A DNA stretch of 64,000 nt, taken from contig OX387200.1 in NCBI GenBank assembly GCA_947561715.1, positions 8,124,501 to 8,188,500 of the forward strand, written 5' to 3'. Below, piece by piece: positions 6,001-58,500 of the stretch. A model generated the notes under the pieces. It did no database searches. It had not been told where the DNA came from and saw nothing but the letters and a program-made list of their open reading frames with translations. Made by a program: the position numbers and the translations under genes. Positions within the stretch are counted from its first letter, which is position 1, and the number at the start of each line of letters is the position of its first letter. Source of the stretch: Ascidia mentula (taxonomy: Eukaryota; Chordata; Ascidiacea; Phlebobranchia; Ascidiidae).

Positions 6001-7900
6001 AAATGCGCTCTTTTTGCAAACTGCTGCAGAAAGAAGGTCTGCATAATGACAATTGGCAACGTTAGTCAATGTAACATTGCATTAGTTTTCAATTAGGAAA
6101 TGCGTGGAGCCGCACGCAGCTATTTTATTGGCTCCATAATACGACGTCAATTAGAAAAACAACAATAGTGCGAATAAACATTCAACATTTAAGCCTTCCG
6201 TGTGCACGTTTAGTAATTATTTGAATGATCAAGGTGCTAACGTTCTGTAGTGACGCTTCTTTTGTTTTGAGGATAAAAACTTAGGCTTTGTGGCTCCGGG
6301 TATAATTTAGCTTGAGTGAAAATAGGCCATACTGACTCCTTCTGTGCTAAAGGTTGTTGAATACTGGTGCAGCCCCTTCAAATAGGATTTAAACGCATAA
6401 AATTTTCCACGATCGACATGTAAACCCTGTGCAATGCATTGATCTTTAGTGAAATTTGATTTCTGCTAAAAACGTACCAATTATGTCAAATTTTTCAAGA
6501 GACGCGCATTTCTTCGTTTACAATCCGATCAATTCCTGTAGCACTTGACATTTTGCACACTAAAAGATGCAAACCTGTTTACCTAAATATTTAAAATTTA
6601 ACTCATGTTGGAACACGCATACAATAAATGACTGCACAAAAAAGGGACATGTTTTAACTTGCCCAAACATACAGACGCAGTCACAACATACTCAACCCGA
6701 ATGCATACACATACATAACTCTGTGGTAAGCAACGTTATACGTACAATACTACACGCGGCAGTTTCGAGAACCAGCAGCTGGACAAGCCGAGCTAAATAT
6801 GATTTCCTGGACAGCGAGGCAGCGGAAAAACAATACGTTGAACGCGCGAACGATTTGACTGCTTTTCCCATACAAAGAACGGGCAGTGGATAAGCGTTTG
6901 GACAATGGACCGGTCTGACGTCACAGTGTGAGGGAATACGGTTCAGTGATAACTAGGCGGATGCTAGGCGCATTGGGTTGCTCGCATGTAGAAGTCTGTC
7001 TCAGCAGTTTATGTTATATCTTGTAACGTGATTAATAAGCCAGTCCCGCAGATTTCAGTGCTTGTCTGAATCTCGAACAACAATCTGTTGACGTCTTAGT
7101 TAAGATTAACAAAATTCGAGCAAAATGATTGACTCCAACAATTAAGCGTATGTAATAAAGTGGGTTACCCTCGAGCGCGCACGTTTTTCAACAAAACTCC
7201 GACCACATGTAAGAAACTAAAACATGTATACTAACCACTACAAAAAACACATCTGTATCTATTCCAGCGCTTACAGCATCCATACAGGGCCACAACCTAA
7301 CTCGTATCTCAGGCTAAATAATCCGTGCTATTTTCCAGCCTGCCCAACTAGAACAATACTCATACTGAGGCAAAACCACAACCCGATCGGCTTTTCTCGA
7401 AGGGCACCCAGTCGGTATGTACGTCTATAAACCGTCGACGAAATTATCCCTAGGCAATACAAAGCGAGTTGAAGCAGAAAAACTACCATTACCCGAAATA
7501 GCGTTACTGCGTCATTTTGATCATGGCTCTATGGCGTACGCCTGGGGAGTTACATCAGCGATAGGATACCTTCAAAGGTACACCATCGTTGTATAAGCGC
7601 TCGTGTTATTTCTGCGCATTGGTGTTTGTTTTCACGTATCCAATGACGTTGGAGTCTTAAGCCGGGGTTTTGGTCGATAAGTGTGTTTTTGACGGAAGCC
7701 GGTTTTGAAGTCAGGCGCGTTTGTGTCAACTGACCATTGTTAACAGTTTACTCGCTGGTTACGGACGTTTAAATTCGTCATCGAAAGTCAATGGACACGT
7801 TATATACAGGTCAATGAAAAAAACGACATTATTCTGAATAATGAACAAAATAGTGCCTTGGTGCCCAACGGATGACGGTGATTGTTTAGTCACCACTAAG
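1..7900. other. No recognisable gene
   Basis: I see no open frame with a recognisable domain and no convincing chain of exons on either strand. Frames here are short (at most about 130 codons) and overlap on both strands, as expected by chance. A TA dinucleotide run lies near 5370-5388. A GC-richer patch at 4560-4800 reads on the minus strand as a short frame ending in an Ala-rich stretch, but has no partner exons. The stretch could be intergenic or part of a long intron of the RhoGEF, whose C1/DH/PH exons I could not find in the window. Confidence 0.5.
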
Positions 7901-7952
7901 TGGAAGTCTTTGCTTGGCCGTTTGGTCAGCAAAGTCGTCTGATAGTCACACC

Positions 7953-8005
7953 AGCTGCACTGATGAGACCTTTTAGGTCGAAACAGTGGCGATCTGTCTG
8001 CAGCT
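7953..8005 (+). ncRNA. Type I hammerhead ribozyme (complete core)
   Basis: All conserved parts are present in order. The stem I 5' strand AGCTGCA (7953-7959) is followed by core CTGATGA (7960-7966), stem II GACC/GGTC with loop TTTTA (7967-7979), core GAA (7980-7982), stem III ACAG/CTGT closing a 7-nt loop (7983-7997), and the cleavage-site C at 7998 in a GTC triplet. The stem I 3' strand TGCAGCT (7999-8005) is a perfect 7-bp complement of 7953-7959. Predicted self-cleavage is just 3' of 7998. Very short stem III hammerheads of this kind are known from eukaryotic retroelements (Penelope-like elements, retrozymes, the schistosome Sm-alpha SINE). No retroelement body is recognisable around it. 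Confidence 0.85.
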
Positions 8006-8399
8006 TATACACAAAATAGTTCCTGTTACACATAACGAAAAACCTAACGAGCACAAAGCACCATTTAAATTTTCTTACACAAATGACTAAACGCACGATC
8101 TTCATCACGTTTAAAAGTTCTAATTTTAGCAAAATAATAATCATCCAACAATTTAACAAGAAAATAAGCATATAGCCCAAATTTAGGAAATTCTTCCGGC
8201 ATGCAATTTATCCAACTTCGAAAGAAACCTTTTTCGACAGAAAATCAATGACTTGGAATTTTTGTGTCACTATAAAAAATCTGTACTGAAACACGATCGA
8301 CCAACGCTACGACCCTTGAGCTGTAAGGCACGAAGTTTAGAAATTCCAACCAAGTCCCGATAAGCTTATCACACACTTTAAGTTGTACAGAAGTTGTCT

Positions 8400-34500: not shown

Positions 34501-37500
34501 TTTACTATAATATGATTATAAGGAAATGTTGTTGCAACTTACCGATGGAACAGTCCAGTTGTAACCAAATGCAATGGGATCGGAAATTACAGTACCGTTT
34601 CTCAACATTAGGTCATTTGTACGCTGCTTGTCGCAGTTTCCTTGGGAGTAATGGTAAATTTATAAATGTATATATGTAAACAACATCTCGTAACAGACAA
34701 TATTTGTTAGGCTGATAGGACCTTAATAGGTCAAAACAGTGGCCATCTGTCTGCAGCTCACAGAATGTTTTTTTCAGATTTCATAACTAGTTTCTTGTTT
34801 GAAGCAATGTGAAGGCATCCAAAAGAAAACTTGGCAGAACTGCTTACCGCACATTCCCTCTGTTCTGCTATCCCAAGTATGGGCGGAGAGTGCAATTGTG
34901 ACAGTGTGTTCAGCCGGGGTAAACTTTACTTCCAGTTCTATGGTGGCGACTACCAGGTGGAAAGTACGCAAACCGACGACCTTCAGACTCATCTCGGATG
35001 ATGCAACCCCTTCACCATAGGGAAATCGTAGTGGGATTCCGTTTCTAGTCGCCTGTAACAAAATTGTAAGTTTGTGGTTTATTTTACGTTACTAAATGCA
35101 CCATTTCATCTCGGAAAAGATTCTTTGCGTTGTGACATAACAATGGCGTATTTGTTCTGTGGTGCTTAGGCGCATCGTGCCAATTTTTTTGGTAATTGTT
35201 TTACCCTTACTTGTAATGAATTAGTTTTATTACCCAGCTGCTGTGTCAGATGCTTGACTTAACAGGGTTGTATATGTACAGTACGTTGCTATTGTGGCAG
35301 CTACTGATGTTTATGCGAATTGTGCCGTTGGTACAATAGATTTTGTGTTGAAAGAATTTGTTTGTTCTGAAACCATGTCTTAGGTATTGTGTGTCTTTCA
35401 ATAGAAACAACATTTCATCCGAATTTGGGTCAATTTGAGAGCCCACTGAAATAGCGGCTCATTCGCAATTAAGTGCCAACTTGGTTTGACATGCGAGAAC
35501 GAAATACTTACCGTCAAGTCTTCATTGAGTTTGTACACCCGACTTCCCAACACCACTGTGATGGCAACTACACATGAGGTGGCTTCGGGATATTTCACAT
35601 TGCAAGGACCTGTTGTTTGAATCACTTCAAATCCCGACTGTGAGTTGGTAAGTTTTGAGTTCTTTGCCAACACATTACTGCAGCCCGGCTGGCTGGGGTA
35701 AGCGTAGTACAGGCCGTCAAAAGTGTGATAAGCGGGGTCAGCGGCGATGTTGCAGTAACCTGTGCAGATTGTGTTGAGTACAAGATAGAAGTCCCTTAAC
35801 ATCCGGAAAAGTTCAAATTGCCGATAGTAAAACCAAAAGTTTTATCGGTAACATTATTCAAAAATGACTTCGGTTAAAGGTTTCAAAAACCTAAAAGCCT
35901 TGATCTAAACCTAAAGCCGTGTAATAAAGGCCTATATACTAACATTGGCATTCCCACTGGCAATTGCAGTTGGCGTCATAGTAGAGCATGGGTGTCATCC
36001 CATTCTGGCAGTTTGGCATTGCGCCTTGGTCGCACATAAGCTGTTTGTTTACGAGCACCAAACTTCCGCTTGCAGTACAAATAATGTATTTGCACTTGTC
36101 GGTAACGTCAGGGTAGACCGTTTCATGCACGGCCAGTGCCTAATAAACAATAAGCAATTGGAGATTTAGACAACGCAAAAACACGCATTACTATCGGATA
36201 CCAAGGGAGCATCGCCCCACAAGGCCTTTATGCTATAGCGATCTCACCCGATCAATCGTAAAGATAACAGTCACAGCCAAGCTGCAACCGAAACACTTTT
36301 GCCAGAGCGCAATATCAGGGAACGTATTACTCATTTTAATTATTTATTTAGCATTTTCGTATACAAGGCCTGCAATATAATCCTACCACAATCTTTGGTC
36401 ACTTTATGTATAATCAGTGCACGATAATGGATCAATTTTTTTACTTTCAACTGCACAAAACAGGTCAATTTTTTTACTTTAAAAGGACGTTATCACAGAT
36501 GCGTAAAATCACATACCACAGAAGATTTTGACGTCTCATTGAAGTAAGGACAGATTATTGCAGTAGTTGTTTCCGGAGCTGCGGTAACAAGCAGATGTAA
36601 GTGCAATTGGTAACGCCCATATATACACAGATATAATGCAAAAGATTTAAAGGTTGTGATTTGCACAGCAGTGTTAATACACGTTTTATTCAATATATTA
36701 CAGGAGTCAGTTTTAAATTCACCCTGCACCAACGGAGAAGTAACTCTAACCTGTAGATGCGGTGCTGACGTAGGGCGCAGTGAAGGTGGTTTCACTTGTA
36801 ACATTTGGCCGTGGAGTTACAGTGGTTGTAATTGGAATAGTGGCTACAATAAAACAGAAAACCCTTCTGTGGTTACAAAAGTCATGTTGCAGTTTCATAC
36901 TACAAAGGATAGCAGGCGGCACTCTTACCTACTATGCGAAACATTTTACTAAGTGGTGTAGCCGCGGCCAGCACCTTATCGAGTCGCCACATTTACAACA
37001 AATCTGAATTTTCTTACTTGTTACCACAAGCTGGCAAATTGCTTGATTGAGAAGCTTTTTTGCTTGGTTTGTTGGGGAAGCTGCGTTTGGCACGGTTTTG
37101 GTCATTTTGAAATTAAAACCATTTGGCGCCATTTGCTTCATCAGGTTCCGACGGCTGTCCTTTGTTCCAAATGCCACGAACCGAAAGCCCTTTTGCCCAA
37201 GGGCGCCAACCACACCTTGTACCGCACCCAGTGTGTTCGGTCCAATAAGCGAGAGAACAATCTGGAAACAGTTTACAACACTTTTACAACATGTCATAAA
37301 ATGTAAGTTGGATTTTGCGAGTTAAATGACAGCATTTTCTGAAAACACTCAAAAATATGTGTTTTACGACTTTTACTACACGTAATGCACCCGAAGGAGC
37401 GTCACAAAAGGTTCAACTACATCTGTTTTTGTTTGTTCACGTCCTATTTAAATTTAGTCATTCTATGACGCCCCACAATGCCCTAAATCTGTCACACAGC

Positions 37501-40500: not shown

Positions 40501-43500
40501 ATAAGGAAACAATTGGAAACAGGTGAACAAAGGCTGGCTGGGGGTATATGTATGATCAAAAAACCTTGTTGTTATGAACAATATTTATATTTCGTCTATT
40601 GGTAAATTTGGAAGAGACAAAAAGTTTTAATCGGTGTAAACTTTTGTGCTGCGGTCGTACGTGAGTTCTTGAAGGGGAAATGTCCAATGAGCCGAGCACA
40701 TTTTTGAGAAATTTCTTTACAGTGTTTAGTCGGAACACGCCAAGGGAAGTTGAGTCGACTACCACAACCAGGTCATGCACGTACAGACACTTTTGCGGAG
40801 ATGGCGCTAAAAGCAATGTAAAAGTTACATTATTATAAAGATTTTGATCATGCACAATATTTGTGTCGGTATCTCTAAATACAAAATATATTGACATTGA
40901 GCACTTGGTTATTAGCACTGTACAAAACCTTATTACTTGTAATTCCCACGTAAAATAGTTATCGCCACCACAACGAAGCATAAAGTGTACAACGAATACC
41001 CACTGGGAGGAGGTGGCAGCGGAGCAGTACACAGGTTGCTGAAAACGAAATCTTCTGCACTAGGTTTCCTAGATCGTGCAAGTGCCATCGACGTATTATC
41101 TGGACCAGAAACCGCATTCAGGTCGCTATACATTGGATAGTGCTCCACAGACAGACTCGGCATGGTTTGACGTAGTTGCTCAACTGTGACGTTGTGAAAG
41201 CCGACCACAACTACGTCACCTTGCACCACGTCGCTCAGGTGGACGTAGAGTGTGCTGAGTGGGCCAATCAAGTTGGTCTGTTAAAATAAATAAATCAGGA
41301 AGCATATCTTTCCGTCAACAGATAGACTTTACACATACGCCTAACTTTATGAAAACAATTTGGATCGATCATTAAAAACCATGGGATATAGGGAACATTT
41401 AACTTAGAAATGGGGGAATACAATTGGGTGAGTTAGTGGAAACCACTTCAACAAACTTTAGCTTTGAAATATCGACGTTAAATTTCGACTACTATAACAC
41501 ACATTTTGTGTAGTTGCAAATGTCAAGTCATAACTAACCTCATTGGGCTCCGTTGTCATTAACAACACTGACCACGTTGCGTTTCCGTCTACAATGGTGG
41601 CTGGCTTTATCACTTGATTGATGATCCTGTTGACAGCTTTCTTTGTATCAGGTTTATTTCCACGTGGCTTTTTGTTTATGGCATCGATTTTGGCCACGAC
41701 TTCATCCAAAGTGGGAGCGTCCCCGATGTTAGTTTGAATTTTAACGGCTTGGGCAAACAGAACAACTGCAACCTGACAAAAGAGAAAAGAAAAACAAACA
41801 GTGCTGTGAGTGTATTTGGAATTTTTTTGCGTCATTTGTGACAGATAAGAAATTGGAGTTTTGCTACAAAGCGTTTGAAATTGTGAATATGTAATGTCTT
41901 GTGGACACGAGAGGGCAACTTATTATCCCGGCACAACAAAGGCCGGTATACATTCGACACTTAATCGGGTTCCAATGCGTTTTACAAACCAACCTGTGTC
42001 TTGTTTTTCTGCACACGGAACTTCTTCACAATACTCTTCAGAAAGGTCTTCACTTCTTCTAGTTTGGCTGTCGTGTTAGCATCAGAGACATCGACTGCAA
42101 GCACTAAGTTAGGCGAATATGGGCAGACTGGCAATGGTGTTACTGGCGTGGTGAATTCTCTGGTGGTTCCTGTGGCCGCTGTGGATGCCTCGGTGGTTGC
42201 CGTGGTTCCTGTAAAAGCAGTGGTTTCTTTGGTGGTTCCTGTAAAAGCTGTTGTTTCTTTGGTGGTTCCAGTAAAAGCTGTTGTTTCTTTTGTGGTTCCT
42301 GTAAAAGCAGTTGTTTCTTTGGTGGTTCCTGTAAAAGCTGTTGTTTCTTTGGTGGTTCCAGTAAAAGCTGTTGTTTCTTTGGTGGTTCCAGTAAAAGCTG
42401 TTGTTTCTTTGGTGGTTCCAGTAAAAGCTGTTGTTTCTTTGGTGGTTCCAGTGACAGTGCTGGTTTCTAAAATGGCAGTAGCTGCTTTAGTGCTTGTTGT
42501 TAAGCAAAGTTATTTCAATAAGTCTACCAAACGGACGACAACTCTAACAATGTCGTCAAGCAACAACGGTTTAAAACGCCACCCTGATTGATATTGTACC
42601 AAGGTATCAATTGGCAAAATGGCATTAAACTTTCTTTTTTTGTTGATTTTTTCAAAAAAATACTGTTAAAATAAGTGCAGGTGATCCAAACTGTTCGATA
42701 TCACATAGATTTTCCTCACTGTGGCATTTTTGTGTTAAACAGACAGCAATACAAATGTTGTCAAATCTCACCGGTGGTAACATTGTAAGGTCTGGTCCAC
42801 GGTTCGCAAATCTCGTGTTGAACATGCCGAATGTGATTAGGGAGTTCATCCACAGAACTAAAGGTCATCACGCCGTCGCCATCGGTCATTGTGGTCAGTT
42901 TGTCGAAATATGGAATCACAGCCACCCCTGGGCCCACAGTAATCACACGAACCTCTCTTGCCTCGATCTTGCGGAATTCCTTCATTAAGTCTTGGTATGT
43001 GTCATGGGGCAAATGATCCAACAGCAAAACCACCACTTTTTGAGCGTTTCTGTGAGCGAGAAGTGTTTTTCAGTGACGCTAATTAACTTGAGCAAATTAA
43101 ACAAAAAGAACATGTGAATTTGCTATGTACGCTTGGTCATACAAAATTCCATTTTATTTGTTTTCCCTTGTTATACAACGTATGTGTATATAAAATTTAT
43201 TTCTAGTTACTGTGTATACGTTTTAGAATCATCTACTGCAGTTTTTCTTGATAAAATATGGGAATTTTTGTGGCAAAACATTTCCCCTCGAAAAATGCAC
43301 AAGTTTAAAAAAATCAAAAAGTACACCATGCCAATTATTAGCTCAGGTCATAGTTTAGTTTTGACTTCCAGAATGTGTAAAATGTATTCACTAGAAAAAG
43401 GTGACCACACAGCACAATTACACATATAATTGCACTTTGCCGGACTATAAGTATCATAATTATTTACCTACGAATGCCGTCACCCAATAGAAGATGGTAT

Positions 43501-46500
43501 ACGCTGTACTCAAGTGCAGGAATCAAATACGTGACGTCAGCCAAACGAGCAAGGCCTTCTGGAGATTGAAGATGCTGGTCGAGGGCTTTGAAAGCACTTT
43601 GCTTGTCATAAGCGTTGTGGAGGTTTATTATCAGTTGAGGGACCGGACCGAATTCAACCACAGCGAAACGAGTTTTTAGAACCTAAAGTGCATGGAAGAT
43701 TTCAATTCGCGCATGACACTGTATAGGCCACGTGTGTCTGAGATGTTACAAAAGGAAGCGGGTATTTAAACTATAGGGATATATTTTCAGACGATTTCGT
43801 TAAACCCTTGTTGAAAGCATGCACAAAATGGTCTTTACAGTGGTTGTTAGTTTGTATATATTTTCAGACAAACCAAATCAAAATTTCGGCAGCTTCGATT
43901 TCGTTAAACCCTTGTTGAAAGCTTGCACAAAATGGTCCCCAATCACACTTTTAATACAAACTTACAACCAATATAAAGACCAAATAAACATTAAACATTG
44001 CACAAGCAAATAACAAACAAAGTTTTGACTTACGTCCAGCTCTACGTGTCTGATCACGTCCTTCATGAAGGATCTCGTCAGAGCAGTCCCGTATGGCGTC
44101 ATCAGCATATGACGATCGACGAGGAAAACAATATCCATCACATTAGTACACACCCAAGGAGGAGGGGTTGTGCCGGCGGTGGTGACTTGGGGTGGGGTCG
44201 AAATCACAGGAGAGGTCGTGACCTCTGGCATCACCGGGATGCGGCATAGTGAAGTGTACATGAAAGATACCACTGGCATCACGAAGTAGGGAAGAAACCT
44301 TGCTCTGCGCGTGCAAAAAAAATGTGCATCAAAACTTGCAGTTTCGTGAGCTAGAATTTGCTTTTGGGTTTAGAAGAACAGACGACAAAAGAACTCGATG
44401 ATCTCACTTCTCGTTTTATTACATCTGTCGCTTACTATCAACAACAAACTTAAGGAAAATCGATTAAATTTATTTACACTTTTTACACATTTATGATCAG
44501 TGCATATTTCTGACTGTCTTGTCACACGTTGATGTTTGATTTCAACATTATTCATGTTGAAAAGTATTGCGCATAAAATACTCAACGTGGTGAACCAACC
44601 TGTAAGCATTTACGTAGCCGTAGTGGTTGACTACTTTTTTCCAAGGTACTGACGCTGCGTCATCCGTCACCACAGATGACACTATAATTCCTTCGCCAAG
44701 CAGGCCCTTTAACTCAAAGGCAGGAATAAACACGTCCGGGTATCTTCGCATAATAAAAACCACCATGCGTTTTACGTTTGGTCCCAGCGGTCTCCCATGG
44801 TTTTTAAACATGAGTTTTGCCGCGTTGATACCAGTCATCATTGACAGGGAGCCAGTTGTTGGGGTGACTTGCAGCTTGCTGTCCATAGCGCTCTTAAAAT
44901 CCTGGTAGGTCTTCGCCATTCCGTTCGTAATCGGTTCTGCATGCTTGCCTAAGCGCATTATTGACGCGTACACAAAGTCCGGACTGAACGCCACGCTCAT
45001 TCCAAACTTCGTCAGAAACCTCTTTACAGCCACGTCCGATACCATGCTGGCCGTCAAAGCATCATCAAGAAGAAAAACTACGTCAACCTTACAAGGGTAG
45101 GAAGGCGCGGGAGGCGACGGTGTTGTCGTAATGGGCGCCGCGGTAGTCACATTGACGTATTCACAGATCAGCTCAAGGGCTTCGTACTCCAAGTCCTCCA
45201 GTTGGTGGGGGTGGCGCACAGGAATGGTGCCGTACATAACTGTGGAGAGCTGGGCGGGGTTTGGTACGCTAATACCACCGATTAGGTAAGTTATGACTGT
45301 TACCCCGCGGCTCCGTGCTCCTTCGATCTCGGGCAGTAGGTCATCGAAGCTCTTGCGCGCCATCAAGAGGAAAATAACTTTGCGCGCTGTAAAAGCGATT
45401 TTTCTCGGGGTGCTGTTGATCACGTGATCCAAAACATAGCGCAGAGCTTTGCCAACGTTGGCTGGCGACGATTGGCCATAATGGTGCAAGCTGTTAATAG
45501 CGCGGACCGCTTGCGGCGCTGTGTAATACTTGGCAAGGTTAAAATCCACTTCTGGGCTCTCGCCGTAGCTCACAGCGGCAAAACGCGATCGGGCTTCATA
45601 GCCTTCCGCCAGCAGAGTAATCTGCCTTTGAATGAACGACATTGTCTCCCGACTGTCGGAGGCCGGCTCCAAAAGCATGGAGTCGTACAAAAACACGGAA
45701 TCGGTAGCGACACAAACTTTAGGCTGTGTAGGAGGGGTTGGCGGAGTTGGCGGCACTGGCGCACAAAACATGTTGGCCAAGTCATAAGCGGTATGCACAA
45801 GATATTTGGCCGGCCTAATAGGGAACTGGCGGTAGTTGAATTCCTCGATGGCATGAGACTCCAGAAAATTGGTTTCAACAGCAATAGCATGAAAACTGAC
45901 ATTGAGAGCGCGCATTCCGTCCCACACACTCTGTGGGATTGCGCCGGTTATAAGGCGGTTGACAATGATTATAATCTGCCGTTGAGGGTAATGTCGAGAC
46001 GAGTCAGTGTAGTTGAGCATGTCCAAAGCAGTCTGAAGATACGCACCCATATGTAGTGGGGTGTTTGGTACTTTTGCACGGACCAACTTAAGCGCCATCA
46101 ACAAGTTCACTTGGTACACCGGGCGGTTTAAGTAAAGAATTACACGAGATTGCTTGCCGCTTACTATAAGACCCGAGTGCGTTTGTTCTTTGCTGTAGTT
46201 GATGAGCGTATCCATTTTGGCGAAGTACTCGTAAAGGTACGTCTGCAAGGTGGCGTTGGAGAGTAGGGCCTCGTCAACAATGAAAACGACGTCCGCCAGC
46301 GGGCTGCAAGCAGGTGGTATTGGTGGCGTCACTGTAGTTGGCAGAGTGGGAGGTGGTGTCGAACCGGAATACTGACGACACAGCCGATCCACAATGCCCC
46401 TTTCCACCGAATCTATTTCGTCGTGAGATGCATTGACAAAAAGTAGAGACCCATTGCCTGGCGGGAAAGAGGACAGGCGGTCGAGGAGGGCAGCATCAGG

Positions 46501-49500
46501 GCCTGCCGACACTATATAAATGTCGCTGTTACGTGCACGTTGCAGAGCTTGAGTGAGCAGTGGGCCTTCCACAGGAGCGCGGTGCATGATGTTCACCACA
46601 AATTTACCGTACGACGCATAGCGGTCTGTACGCGAGGTGAATACGTTATCGGCGATGTATTGAAGAGCTTCTCCAAGCCTGAGGGGCCCGGAAGCATCTC
46701 CCGTGTATTCCAACCACACGATCGCTTCCGCTGAAAGCAGCTCCTCGTGATAGTCATTCAGGCCAAATGCGAGCGACGGTCGGTCTTTTCCACCGTACAG
46801 GACTGCTGCCACACGCACTGGAATCCCGATATCGAAGTTGTCCATTGTGTTGATGAGCAAATGACGGACTTCGGTTGCGTTGGTGACCAGCCAGAGTCGA
46901 TCGAGTAAGAACACAACGTCGGCTACTAGGTACGCGCATGGTACGTAAGGTGGTAGCACCGGGGCGTCCGTACAAATTGACTCGAAGACTTGTAGGCCTG
47001 AGTCAATGAGTTGGGACATGGTAAGAATGTGGGTGTGGTAACGTTTGCTTGTGATAAGAGTTCGTGTGTCGGAATTTACTGCCTTGGGAAAGCGAGAAAG
47101 GACGGAGATAACAATGCCGTTGGCATAGATTTGCGTCAGCATGGTTCGGTTGACTGGACTCGGCTTTCGCGCCAACAGAAGCTGCAAAAGCAAATGAGAT
47201 GTTTTCACTTAACGAGTCCTCCAGGAGAGAAGAATAAAAACTTCACGTATATTACGATGGTTAAGTAATCTTGTTCGTTTTTTGCTTTTACTATTAAACA
47301 AGTGCCTCAAAAACAATCATTCACATCAATGTTTTGAAATAAAAAACTTATTTACGTTTAAAGAATGTCTACTCACCACAATCGTTTTGTTCCCTGGTGT
47401 GGTGGCGTTCAACATTCTAATAGCATCGAAGATGGCCACGTTGGTATTGGCTTTTTCTGTGCTGGGCAGTTGGTCCACTGGGGGTCGTTGATAAATTGAA
47501 TCAATCAGAGCGAGAATACTTGCTTTGGTTTGAGTCGAATCGAAAGGTTGAACCACTTTGGTGGTCAGACCTTCTTTGATTATTGCCACCTGGGAAAAAT
47601 TTCATCTCAAGGCCTTGTTTCTGTTTCATACTTTAACAAGTCAACACTTTATCACATGGGGTCGAACTAATGATAATGTATTTTAACTTGTGTCAGAAAG
47701 GTGTGGATAACATCGGGCGTATGTTCTACATCCACTTGATGAAAGTGGACGATTGTGAAAAACTTTGAGTTCAAAACGTACCTGCACCGCTGTCGGTGAA
47801 ATATCTACCCGAGACAAAGCGTTGTGGAAAAACCTCCTGACAGCATCACGTTTTGACGGAGATGTGTTGTCGGCTAAAGCAGCATCCAACACGAACACCA
47901 CGTTGGATCTTTGATCACAAATGTATGGTGGTGTGGTGGTCGCTTGCGTGGTGGTTCCTGTAGTTCCGGTTGTCCCTGACCAATTGTTGCTTTTTTGTTT
48001 GGTTGATTTTTTTTAATTAATTAATTTGCATGCACACTTTTTGGTCGCTCTGTTTATTTATGTTGATCTTGCCAAAACGTTCCATAAAAAAGCTACAAAA
48101 CAAGCATCTATATTGACACATGCGGGATGACACAGATCAACAACCAAAAGTTGACTAAATCACCATAACATTTTACAATTGCCAATAACTTATGCTACAG
48201 CGATGCTATATACAGTTACTAAAGTTTGCTGTGCAAAAGCAACGTTCTAAAATTTCAAGTGTTCGTGTTCGTTACCTGTAGTTCCCGTATAAGGTTGTGT
48301 GGTTCCGGGTGTGGTGGTTTGTGGAAGTGTAACAATTGACGTTGGTGGCAGTATGTAGTACAAAGCTGTACACACCACATAACGGTAAGTAAGTTATTGG
48401 GAAACAAGTCGTCAACAACACAAACACTTACTGTCACACAAATCCTTAGACAGTTCTGTGATCAAATCCGGGTTCAGTAGACCTTTGTAACCACCTCCAA
48501 CTACGCGGTAACGTATGTCAGGATACACAGAGTCGAACAACGCGGTCAGCATCGCTAAATTCGGGTTGGGTGGCGCCAAAGCGCTTGCATTGGTAATTCC
48601 AGTATCCAGCCCCGTATGGCCATTTACACCGCCGTTAACTCCATTTACACCGTTAACCTGGCTTCCATTAATATCGTCTTTATCGCCGCCATGACCGTTA
48701 ACGCCATTGACCCCGCCGAGGTTTCCAGAGCTTTGAGAGACATTATCGCTGGAGACGATAAGGATATACATGCGTTTCCGCATACCGGTCGTGTTGAGGG
48801 CCTGGATCCCCTGCTTCAAGGAATCTATGCGCTGGTACTCGTCGGCGTCGATTACCATTACGAGGGTCTGGGCTACCACAAAGCGCCCGAAGAAGTCAAG
48901 CCCTGGTATGGCGAATGCTGCAGAAAAGTGAACATTGTTATGGACCTGTATGTAAGTATAGTGCATGTTTCGCCAGTTGAGGACTAATATCTGCAAAAAA
49001 ACTACTTGTTTTTAGTTGGCGGCCTTTATAGCCAAAATGTACATTTATCGAAGCACATATTGTCAAACGTCGAAATATTTAAAAGAGAACTGACCGTTAA
49101 GTTGTTCCGAGAAATGGTGCATGCTCAAACCAGCGTCTCTGTGACTGTCACCAGGAATTTGAAGCGCATCGACCTTTTGCCGGTATTGAGATGGCTGTGC
49201 GTTGTATTCGTTGGTGGCAATAAAATATGGCTTGAATGTGTGGACCGTGTTATCATACACTATCACGGTGGCCTGCAAACAACGCAATACTAACATAATT
49301 AAATAGTTTGTCATCACTCGCATATACAGCAGGAGAAGGGGTTAAGTCTTCTTTTCGCGTTTTTAGAAATTTAAATCAATTTTTGCAATATCCCGTGTCA
49401 GTCGTTGACATAAGTTTTTGTAGTTACTGCTTGTCCACTATTTGTGACAGACTGACTGCTTCAAATTTCTCGTACCACCTGATAAACCGAAGATAAGCTC

Positions 49501-55500: not shown

Positions 55501-58500
55501 ATCACAACTATCTTTCGCACTCCGGGGCGCCCTCCGTTGGAGGCTAAAACGCGAAAGAAAGTGTCAGATAAAACCAAACAAGATGTATTTCAGATGACGA
55601 TGTGTTTTTGCTACATTCACATTCCCTTTGTCTTCTGGATGGAGGTCATTTCATGGAGTGCTTTCTCCAAAAGCATTTTTATCCACCATAAAGCGCTCAT
55701 TTATATAGGTTGAAATTATTATTCCCCACCCCCCCAAAAAAAGAAAAAGAAAAAAAGGGAAACCAAGCAAACAAGATAGTGGGCTAATGTTTTGCCAACG
55801 ACAACCAAAAGCTGCATCATTTTAAATTTTTGACAAGAAGGCTTGTCGTATCAGAAAAGGGCAACAAATGTGTTTGACCTATAATTGAAGGGATCCGAGT
55901 GGAACAGAATCTGACATTTACTAATTGTCGCACTTACGCAAGTACACGTCATTAAATGCTTGTTGTATGGGTATAGCGTATCCGAATGACGTTCTTCCTG
56001 GTGGCTGCAATCCCTTTATTGCCTTGTCCAATTCAGTTCGATTCTGATTTGCACCGAGTGGAAAGCCTTGCAATGTGTCCCCATACATATAAACTCCAAC
56101 CTGGTATAACGCAAAGTATGCTTAGGCAGGAAAATTACGCAATGCTATTTCATCGGAGGTGATGATAACGCCTTAGTTCAAAGTAACTTTTGAATTCTAG
56201 GTTCTGTTGCAGGACAATGGGTACAAATTGTAAGTTTAAAAAAATTGCAGTATGACTGTCGGCATTAAAAATATTTGGTAGTAATGAAAACACATAAATA
56301 TGAATATGTACGACAAACACCGGGATTTACCAATCCCACGTTTCGTAATGTTGTTGAGTATAATAAGCCAAACATTAACGTAAGCACATTTGCTGCTTTA
56401 CCTGTGTTTCGTTAGGTCCAATTGGAAACTTTTGGGTCATGTTCAGTATTAGAGTCTTGTAAAAGTCAAAAATATTACGGCCTGGATGCAAGCCCGCAAT
56501 CCCATCCACAAGGAAGATGACGTCAGCCGGTGGCATGTAGAAGCACTCTGAAAGTTAAAGTGTTTCAGAAACTTGCGCTTGGACAAATAAACATTACATT
56601 GACTTTTTGCTAACGGATTTTCTCAAGGATTTTTCGACAATACTTTTCTTTAGCTCCTACCTGGTATAGGTATAGGAGTTGTGGTGGGTGCCGGAGTCGT
56701 CGTGGTTGCTGGAAAGTAATGTGTATTTATTGTAAAAAGTGCGATTATTATTATTAGTGTGGAACGTGAATGAAATAAGCCCAGTATCTCAGGTATATGC
56801 CAATCTAAACTACGTATATTAACTGGTAGTACCTGTGGTTTCAGTAGTTGCAGTAGTTTCTTTAGTGGTTCCAGTAAAAGGTGTTGTTTCTTTAGAGGTT
56901 CCTGTAAAAGCAGTGGTTTCTTTGGTGGTTCCTGTGGTAGCAGTAGTCTCTGTGGTGGTTCCAGTGAAAGGTGTTGTTTCTTTAGTGGTTCCTGTAAAAG
57001 CAGTGGTTTCTTTGGTGGTTCCTGTAAAAGCAGTGGTTTCTTTGGTGGTTCCTGTGGTAGCAGTAGTCTCTGTGGTGGTTCCTGTGAAAGGTGTTGTTTC
57101 TTTAGTGGTTCCTGTAAAAGCAGTGGTTTCTGTGGTGGTTCCTGTGGTAGCAGTGGTCTCTGTGGTGGTTCCTGTAAGAGGTGTTGTTTCTTTAGTGGTT
57201 TCTGTAAAAGCAGTGGTTTCTTTGGTGGTTCCTGTGGTAGCAGTGGTCTCTGTGGCGGTTCCTGTAAAAGCAGTGGTTTCTTTGGTAGTTCCTGTGGTAG
57301 CAGTGGTTTCTGTGGTGGTTCCTGTGAAAGGTGTTGTTTCTTTGGTGGTTCCTGTAAAAGCAGTGGTTTCTTTGGTGGTTCCTGTGGTAGCAGTGGTCTC
57401 TGTGGTGGTTCCAGTGAAAGGTGTTGTTTCTTTAGTGGTTCCTGTAAAAGCAGTGGTTTCTTTGGTGGTTCCTGTGGTAGCAGTGGTCTCTGTGGTGGTT
57501 CCTGTGAAAGGTGTTGTTTCTTTAGTGGTTCCTGTGAAAGGTGTTGTTTCTTTAGTGGTTCCTGTAAAAGGTGTTGTTTCTTTAGTGGTTCCTGTAAAAG
57601 CAGTGGTTTCTGTGGTGGTTCCTGTGGTAGCAGTGGTCTCTGTGGTGGTTCCTGTAAAAGCAGTGGTTTCTTTGGTGGTTCCTGTAAAAGGTGTTGTTTC
57701 TTTAGTGGTTCCTGTAAAAGCAGTTGTTTCATTGGTGGTTCCTGTAAAAGGTGTTGTTTCTTTAGTGGTTCCTGTGAAAGGTGTTGTTTCTTTAGTGGTT
57801 CCTGTAAAAGGTGTTGTTTCTTTAGTGGTTCCTGTAAAAGCAGTGGTTTCTGTGGTGGTTCCTGTGGTAGCAGTGGTCTCTGTGGTGGTTCCTGTAAAAG
57901 CAGTGGTTTCTTTGGTGGTTCCTGTGGTAGCAGTGGTCTCTGTGGCGGTTCCTGTAAAAGCAGTGGTTTCTTTGGTAGTTCCTGTGGTAGCAGTGGTTTC
58001 TGTGGTGGTTCCTGTGAAAGGTGTTGTTTCTTTAGTGGTTCCTGTAAAAGCAGTGGTTTCTTTGGTGGTTCCTGTGGTAGCAGTAGTCTCTGTGGTGGTT
58101 CCAGTGAAAGGTGTTGTTTCTTTAGTGGTTCCTGTAAAAGCAGTGGTCTCTGTGGTGGTTCCTGTGGTAGCAGTAGTCTCTGTGGTGGTTCCAGTGAAAG
58201 GTGTTGTTTCTTCAGTGGTTCCTATAAAAGCAGTGGTTTCTTTGGTGGTTCCTGTGGTGGTTGCTGTTAACTCCTGGGTAGTTGCGGTGGAAGCAGTGGT
58301 AGATACTGTAGTGGCAATAGTAGTTTCAGGAGGTTCTGGAAAAAAATTGAAGGTAAGAAAAACATATGCTTTTGTTTTGCCATATCACGCAAAATAAATG
58401 CTGTAGGCACGTAATTGTAGATTTGAAATGTGATCTGGTGAACTTAATGCGCGTTTACTTGACTTCTAAAATCCGCCAAGCGCATACGTACATGATTATG

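What the first reader, a model, noticed from the sequence alone, without database searches (positions are those of the whole stretch)
7953..8005. Complete type I hammerhead ribozyme with a minimal stem III
Every conserved core base is present, all three helices pair perfectly, and the cleavage triplet is GTC. The four-pair stem III is typical of hammerheads carried by eukaryotic retroelements (Penelope-like elements, retrozymes). A second, decayed copy lies elsewhere in the window and a Penelope-like tail is nearby, so the genome probably holds a family. The host element here is not recognisable.
Basis: partly seen in the sequence, partly recalled or inferred. Interest (0 to 1): 0.8.

Follow-up and report, generated by a model that had tools for sequence, protein, structure and literature searches.

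The report
Penelope-marked hammerhead retrozyme in an animal
The ribozyme sits in a truncated copy of an abundant 285-base jumping element whose insertion scars match those of the Penelope retrotransposons in the same genome, which suggests what moves animal retrozymes and how.

Summary
The hammerhead is real: complete core, three stems, and no comparable hit in 100 shuffles of the window. It lies in a 5'-truncated copy (7858-8015) of a 285-bp non-coding element that forms tandem arrays, one ribozyme per unit. A pattern at the ribozyme's 3' junction matches 1,242 places in the 196-Mb host genome (control 1). This is a non-LTR retrozyme, a known kind of animal element whose mover is unproven, Penelope-like elements (PLEs) being the published suspects.

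The new part is the footprint. Insertions end at two fixed sites: A, about 17 nt past the ribozyme cut, and B, about 45-50 nt past it, like the PLE "tail". Of 53 loci examined, 26 are head-to-head with both edges resolved, and all 26 pair A with B. The same rule holds in 21 of 23 head-to-head PLE pairs by target duplication, and by eye in the other two. Likeliest mechanism: a PLE protein cuts both target strands and both ends prime on one retrozyme RNA, probably a ribozyme-made circle copied repeatedly. No PLE with a matching tail was found, no RNA data exist, and a linear multimer template is not excluded.

The parts
7858..8015 (+). Single 5'-truncated retrozyme unit (158 bp of a 285-bp unit), ending at site A
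   Evidence: 97.5% to the L004 unit
7953..8005 (+). Type I hammerhead ribozyme, predicted cut after 7998
   Evidence: direct reading; 0 hits in 100 shuffles
8011..8015 (+). 3' terminus at site A (unit positions 13-17, microhomology with the target)
7845..7854 (.). Left copy of the target duplication, ACAAAATAGT; 7855-7857 (GCC) is unexplained filler
   Evidence: sequence printed
8011..8020 (.). Right copy of the target duplication; the inferred target is GAAC|AAAATAGTTCCT|GTT (right copy 8013-8024, GTT 8025-8027)
   Evidence: sequence printed; the 12-bp reading is inferred from the motif
34712..34758 (+). Decayed hammerhead relative with a broken core

Best explanation
A non-autonomous, non-LTR retrozyme of 285 nt moved by Penelope-like machinery. 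Its transcripts are cut by the hammerhead and (inferred) closed into circles. A PLE protein makes a staggered cut of about 12-13 bp and uses both target 3' ends as primers on the retrozyme RNA, one at site A and the other at site B. Reverse transcription runs past the ribozyme cut, often several times round. The two cDNA arms are joined head to head; if only one arm is kept, a one-ended 5'-truncated copy results, as in this window. Shown here: copies, unit, termini, A/B pairing, target duplications, and the same pairing in PLEs of the genome. Inferred: the PLE protein, the circle, and one RNA serving both primers.
For: 285-bp unit with one ribozyme each in tandem arrays; 1,242 junction matches against 1 for the control; 26 of 26 resolved head-to-head insertions pair A with B, of 53 loci examined; target duplications, 22 of the 26 being 12-15 bp; a natural empty site for L022; PLE pairs: 21 of 23 with 12-15 bp duplications and one arm longer than the other by a tail; copies cross the ribozyme cut and 4 of 81 arm 5' ends lie within 9 nt of it, 5.4 expected; units alike within an array, 1.8 against 5.3 differences; published PLE protein cuts and extends both strands and starts at two adjacent sites that bound the tail (PMC11167929).
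Against: No PLE with the retrozyme's tail sequence among those read. The AAC side of the retrozyme's target motif is not seen in the pooled PLE targets (A at -3 and -2: 5 and 8 of 21, against 21 and 21 of 25). In vitro the published PLE showed no difference of start site between strands, needed no ribozyme cleavage and no circle was reported. No RNA data. One genome only; LINEs not tested as control.
Confidence: 0.7

Rival explanations
1. Same element and same PLE machinery, but the template is an uncut linear multimer transcript of a genomic array, not a circle.
For: Frangieh et al. 2024 propose multi-copy transcripts and saw insertion without ribozyme cleavage in vitro. A homogeneous source array would also give uniform copies.
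Against: Units within an array share variants, and in L079 both arms carry the same ones (some of these also mark L080, so partly a subfamily); PLE F1 arrays show 0 differences in 512 bp within arrays.
Confidence: 0.2
2. The retrozyme is moved by a LINE, by ordinary twin priming.
For: 5' truncation, target duplications and 5' inversions are LINE-like.
Against: Two fixed 3' termini with strict pairing match the PLE tail, not a single 3' end. LINEs of this genome were not examined.
Confidence: 0.07
3. A satellite repeat spread by unequal exchange, with no retrotransposition.
For: Tandem 285-bp repeats.
Against: Dispersed copies with target duplications, an empty site, constant ends.
Confidence: 0.01
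4. A fragment of a PLE terminal repeat or a chance hammerhead.
For: PLE terminal repeats here also carry hammerheads.
Against: 0 hits in 100 shuffles; the 285-bp unit repeats on its own and has no ATG ORF over 46 aa.
Confidence: 0.02

Closest known systems
Metazoan non-LTR retrozymes (Cervera and de la Pena 2020, PMC7229834; parts 1-4 of 6 read)
   Same: Type I hammerhead, about 170-400 nt unit in tandem copies, low GC, non-coding, target duplications longer than 4 bp
   Different: The two-site ends and their pairing are not described in the parts I read; there the mover is open, LINEs or PLEs, with PLEs a strong candidate. Circular RNA shown there, not testable here
Penelope-like elements of the Penelope/Poseidon type (Frangieh et al. 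2024, PMC11167929, parts 1-3 of 4 read; Arkhipova et al. 2013, PMC3846280, passages and Discussion read)
   Same: Hammerhead upstream of the start sites, two start sites bounding a tail of roughly 30-40 bp, tandem and head-to-head copies, target duplications
   Different: The retrozyme encodes no protein; its ribozyme has a looped four-pair stem III. The 2013 paper calls the tail optional on one inverted repeat and explains inversions by self-priming; the strict pairing here suggests priming by both target strands
Plant LTR retrozymes (PMC7761336 passages; PMC7229834)
   Same: Hammerhead-bearing non-autonomous element with circular RNA as proposed intermediate
   Different: Plant ones have LTRs, type III ribozymes and 4-bp target duplications

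Membership tests
Metazoan non-LTR retrozyme | Type I hammerhead with complete core | tested here: met
   Rfam below gathering score
Metazoan non-LTR retrozyme | Unit of about 170-400 bp in tandem copies | tested here: met
   284-285 bp; L004/L022, L031, L079
Metazoan non-LTR retrozyme | Non-coding, GC under 50% | tested here: met
   47.4% GC, longest ATG ORF 46 aa in a dimer
Metazoan non-LTR retrozyme | Target duplications longer than 4 bp, no LTR | tested here: met
   7-15 bp in the 26 two-ended loci
Metazoan non-LTR retrozyme | Self-cleaving, circular RNA in tissue | not testable with these tools
   no RNA data
PLE-type insertion | Two 3' termini bounding a tail | tested here: met
   A and B in the retrozyme, same in PLEs of the genome
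PLE-type insertion | Head-to-head copies with the tail on one arm | tested here: met
   26 of 26 resolved retrozyme loci; 21 of 23 PLE pairs by target duplication
PLE-type insertion | Autonomous partner with matching tail sequence in the same genome | tested here: inconclusive
   none among PLE loci read; of 150 listed GIY-YIG matches only L045-L074 and the outer edges of 19 pairs were read
Penelope-like element | Encodes RT and GIY-YIG endonuclease | tested here: not met
   no ATG ORF over 46 aa in the unit; it is not itself a PLE

The most novel reading that the evidence does not exclude
Bilateral rolling-circle target priming: one ribozyme-made RNA circle is engaged at its two tail sites by the two 3' ends of one staggered cut, and this single mechanism builds both PLE and retrozyme insertions. 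It would explain the PLE tail, the head-to-head arrays and why PLEs keep a hammerhead.
Probability: 0.4. Interest if true: 0.85.

Novelty: new member of a known kind. Interest (0 to 1): 0.62.

Why it matters
The literature I read leaves open which enzyme moves animal retrozymes, naming PLEs as strong or likely candidates, and calls the role of PLE hammerheads 'still a mystery' (PMC7229834; PMC7761336 passages). A shared, strict terminal signature of retrozymes and PLEs in one genome is footprint evidence for the PLE link and gives a simple rule to check elsewhere: A at one edge, B at the other. The pairing suggests that both target strands prime on one RNA, which an in vitro PLE assay can test.

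Tried and rejected
Rfam at the gathering threshold gave nothing, and the Rfam type I model listed 7 places in the genome, all below cut-off and none of them the 99%-identical copies, so counts rest on DNA and pattern searches. The search for an autonomous partner failed: blastn of the unit against PLE loci, a tail motif search and a translated comparison found, beyond weak hits, only retrozyme relatives lying near PLEs (L064, L074). L046/L053 looked like a partner at first, but the similar stretch reads as a decayed retrozyme relative with a changed core. The host species was not identified: the mitochondrial COX1 reads AGR as Ser and TGA as Trp, an invertebrate code; a paper search by assembly size did not help. 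PMC8557442 and PMC4209133 are not held.

Rows set aside before counting. Of 53 retrozyme loci: 26 two-ended and resolved, 16 one-ended A, 4 one-ended B, 7 unresolved (L014, L015, L023, L087, L089, L090, L091; of these L015 and L091 show one clear B edge and a second inverted piece without a clear end, and L087/L089/L090 are near-identical with an edge that cannot be aligned past unit position 7). L004-L006 and L037 were left out because they overlap L022, L036 and L001. Five of the 20 loci fetched (L075-L079) were chosen because they looked inverted. Edges of five two-ended loci (L022, L027, L033, L036, L086) were entered by hand from the alignments. The script gives L036 as A/A; I count its outer edges, A and B with a 12-bp duplication, because a folded-back copy of its left flank lies between. 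PLE pairs were picked by eye as head-to-head neighbours in the list. In one search the script chose a wrong repeat for L111/L112 (one search gives the 13-mer), which slightly taints the PLE motif table. L103/L104 has a length difference of 65, its shorter arm ending upstream of the usual A. L125/L126 has no target duplication and L047 none of 7 bp or more (6 bp by eye). L068 dropped out of the comparison (15 loci named, 14 measured).

Full report
Observation. The hammerhead at 7953-8005 is present as described, with a predicted cut after C7998. A strict structural search finds it alone in the window and finds none in 100 dinucleotide shuffles. Rfam does not report it at gathering thresholds and gives only weak hits of two other hammerhead models otherwise. 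The isolated sequence has a better non-hammerhead fold. A second, broken copy lies at 34712-34758.

The element. The host assembly has 195.8 Mb in 79 contigs; its mitochondrial COX1 uses AGR for Ser and TGA for Trp, as in invertebrates. A 161-bp query around the ribozyme gave 48 matches: the window itself, 41 that cover the query up to about position 115-122, and 6 shorter ones; only the best 40 of 1,786 candidates were scored. Arrays in L004/L022, L031 and others show a repeating unit of 284-285 bp with one ribozyme each. The unit has 47.4% GC and no ATG ORF over 46 aa. A 21-base pattern at the ribozyme's 3' junction has 665 + 577 matches with up to two mismatches; the reversed control has 1 + 0. 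The window copy is a single 5'-truncated unit with a 10-bp target repeat. L022 has a natural empty counterpart in a duplicated flank (98.4% and 94.7% identity), where the 12-mer occurs once, with one mismatch. As a circle the unit is predicted to be strongly self-paired (-90.1 kcal/mol, z -3.1 against 200 mononucleotide shuffles).

Ends. I examined 53 loci. Outward-facing 3' ends fall at two places: A, unit positions 16-29 at maximum extension and mostly 16-20, and B, 41-55. Twenty-six loci are head-to-head with both edges resolved, and all 26 are A/B; 20 are one-ended (16 A, 4 B); 7 are unresolved. If each edge chose its site independently, 26 of 26 would have a chance of at most 0.5^26, about 1.5e-8. 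Target repeats in the 26 are 7-15 bp long, 22 of them 12-15. Oriented with A to the left, the 25 targets with a repeat of at least 8 bp tend to read AAC, repeat, (G/T)TT: A in 21 of 25 at -3 and at -2, C in 15 of 25 at -1, T in 19 of 25 at +2. Of the 20 one-ended copies 18 were tested: 11 have GTT 5-13 nt past the edge, against 23% of random flank positions. The A-to-B stretch is 86% conserved over 44 bp in a diverged relative (L064) that is 69% alike over 210 bp elsewhere.

Penelope-like elements. The GIY-YIG family has 150 matches in the genome, 382 candidates having been seen. For 19 head-to-head neighbour pairs I fetched both outer edges and added four pairs from loci already held. In 21 of these 23 pairs a target repeat of 12-15 bp bounds the two ends, and one arm is longer than the other: by 27-44 nt in 17 pairs, by 65 in one and by about 70-79 in three of a 3.49-kb family (distances also). 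The other two pairs (L125/L126, L047) look the same by eye but lack such a repeat. The extra stretch corresponds to the PLE tail. Frangieh et al. 2024 (parts 1-3 of 4 read) found that a purified PLE protein cuts and extends both strands and starts at two adjacent internal sites that bound the tail, with no difference between strands in vitro. The A. vaga study (passages and Discussion) had noted the tail as optionally present on one of the inverted repeats and head-to-head as the most frequent arrangement, explained by self-priming. The strict pairing seen here fits priming by both target strands better. Six paper searches listed no paper whose title or abstract start states this; I read only the papers named, and the library holds open-licence papers only.

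Target motif in PLEs. The pooled PLE targets share C at -1 (10 of 21), G at +1 (9 of 21) and T at +2 (12 of 21), but not the AA before it (5 and 8 of 21, with one wrong row). So the families seen may differ in target preference, and the retrozyme's partner may not be among them.

Template. Copies run through the ribozyme cut, and 4 of 81 arm 5' ends lie within 9 nt of it, 5.4 expected if uniform. A monomer cut at both ends and started at A would give only about 17 nt. So the template was a circle or an uncut multimer. Full units within an array differ by 1.8 changes on average (22 comparisons) and units of different loci by 5.3 (254 comparisons; 24 units in 12 loci). In L079 both arms carry the same variants, several of which L080 shares. 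PLE F1 copies show no difference in 512 bp within an array (11 comparisons) and a mean of 14.1 between loci (80 comparisons, minimum 3). This favours a circle but does not prove it.

Limits. The partner PLE is not identified; PLE loci were sampled, not exhausted; LINEs were not tested as a control; the rule comes from one genome; there are no RNA data. The element itself is a new member of a known kind; the footprint is the interesting part.

Noticed in passing
G000 C67:6134028-6146916 (L057-L061), C52:9243979-9259647, C2:19799061-19806556: Whole PLEs stand in head-to-head tandem arrays with regular spacing (2,870 bp and about 3,493-3,500 bp), like the retrozyme arrays.
   Followed up: partly
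L097-L132 and L045-L074 (PLE families): PLE hammerheads read by eye have a palindromic, loopless stem III (AGCT, ACGT, ATAT), as expected of dimeric ribozymes; at least five families with different tails are present.
   Followed up: partly
L036 (C67:9117729-9121273): A retrozyme insertion whose left flank (about 0.9 kb) is copied again inside it in inverted orientation, a fold-back rearrangement within an A/B insertion.
   Followed up: partly
L038-L044, L064:499-734, L074, L080:149-277: Diverged retrozyme relatives with intact-looking hammerheads; several keep a tail motif like TATTATTGGCTC or ATTATTATGGCTC.
   Followed up: partly
window 56850-58255 and 42202-42452: Tandem arrays of a 30-bp unit inside long open frames that read as Thr-rich repeats (TTKETTAFTG) on the minus strand.
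   Followed up: no
window 44548-47208, minus strand: An 886-aa open frame that by eye looks like several von Willebrand A-type domains; no family search was run.
   Followed up: no
L002:1-692: A tandem array with a 9-bp period near one retrozyme copy.
   Followed up: no
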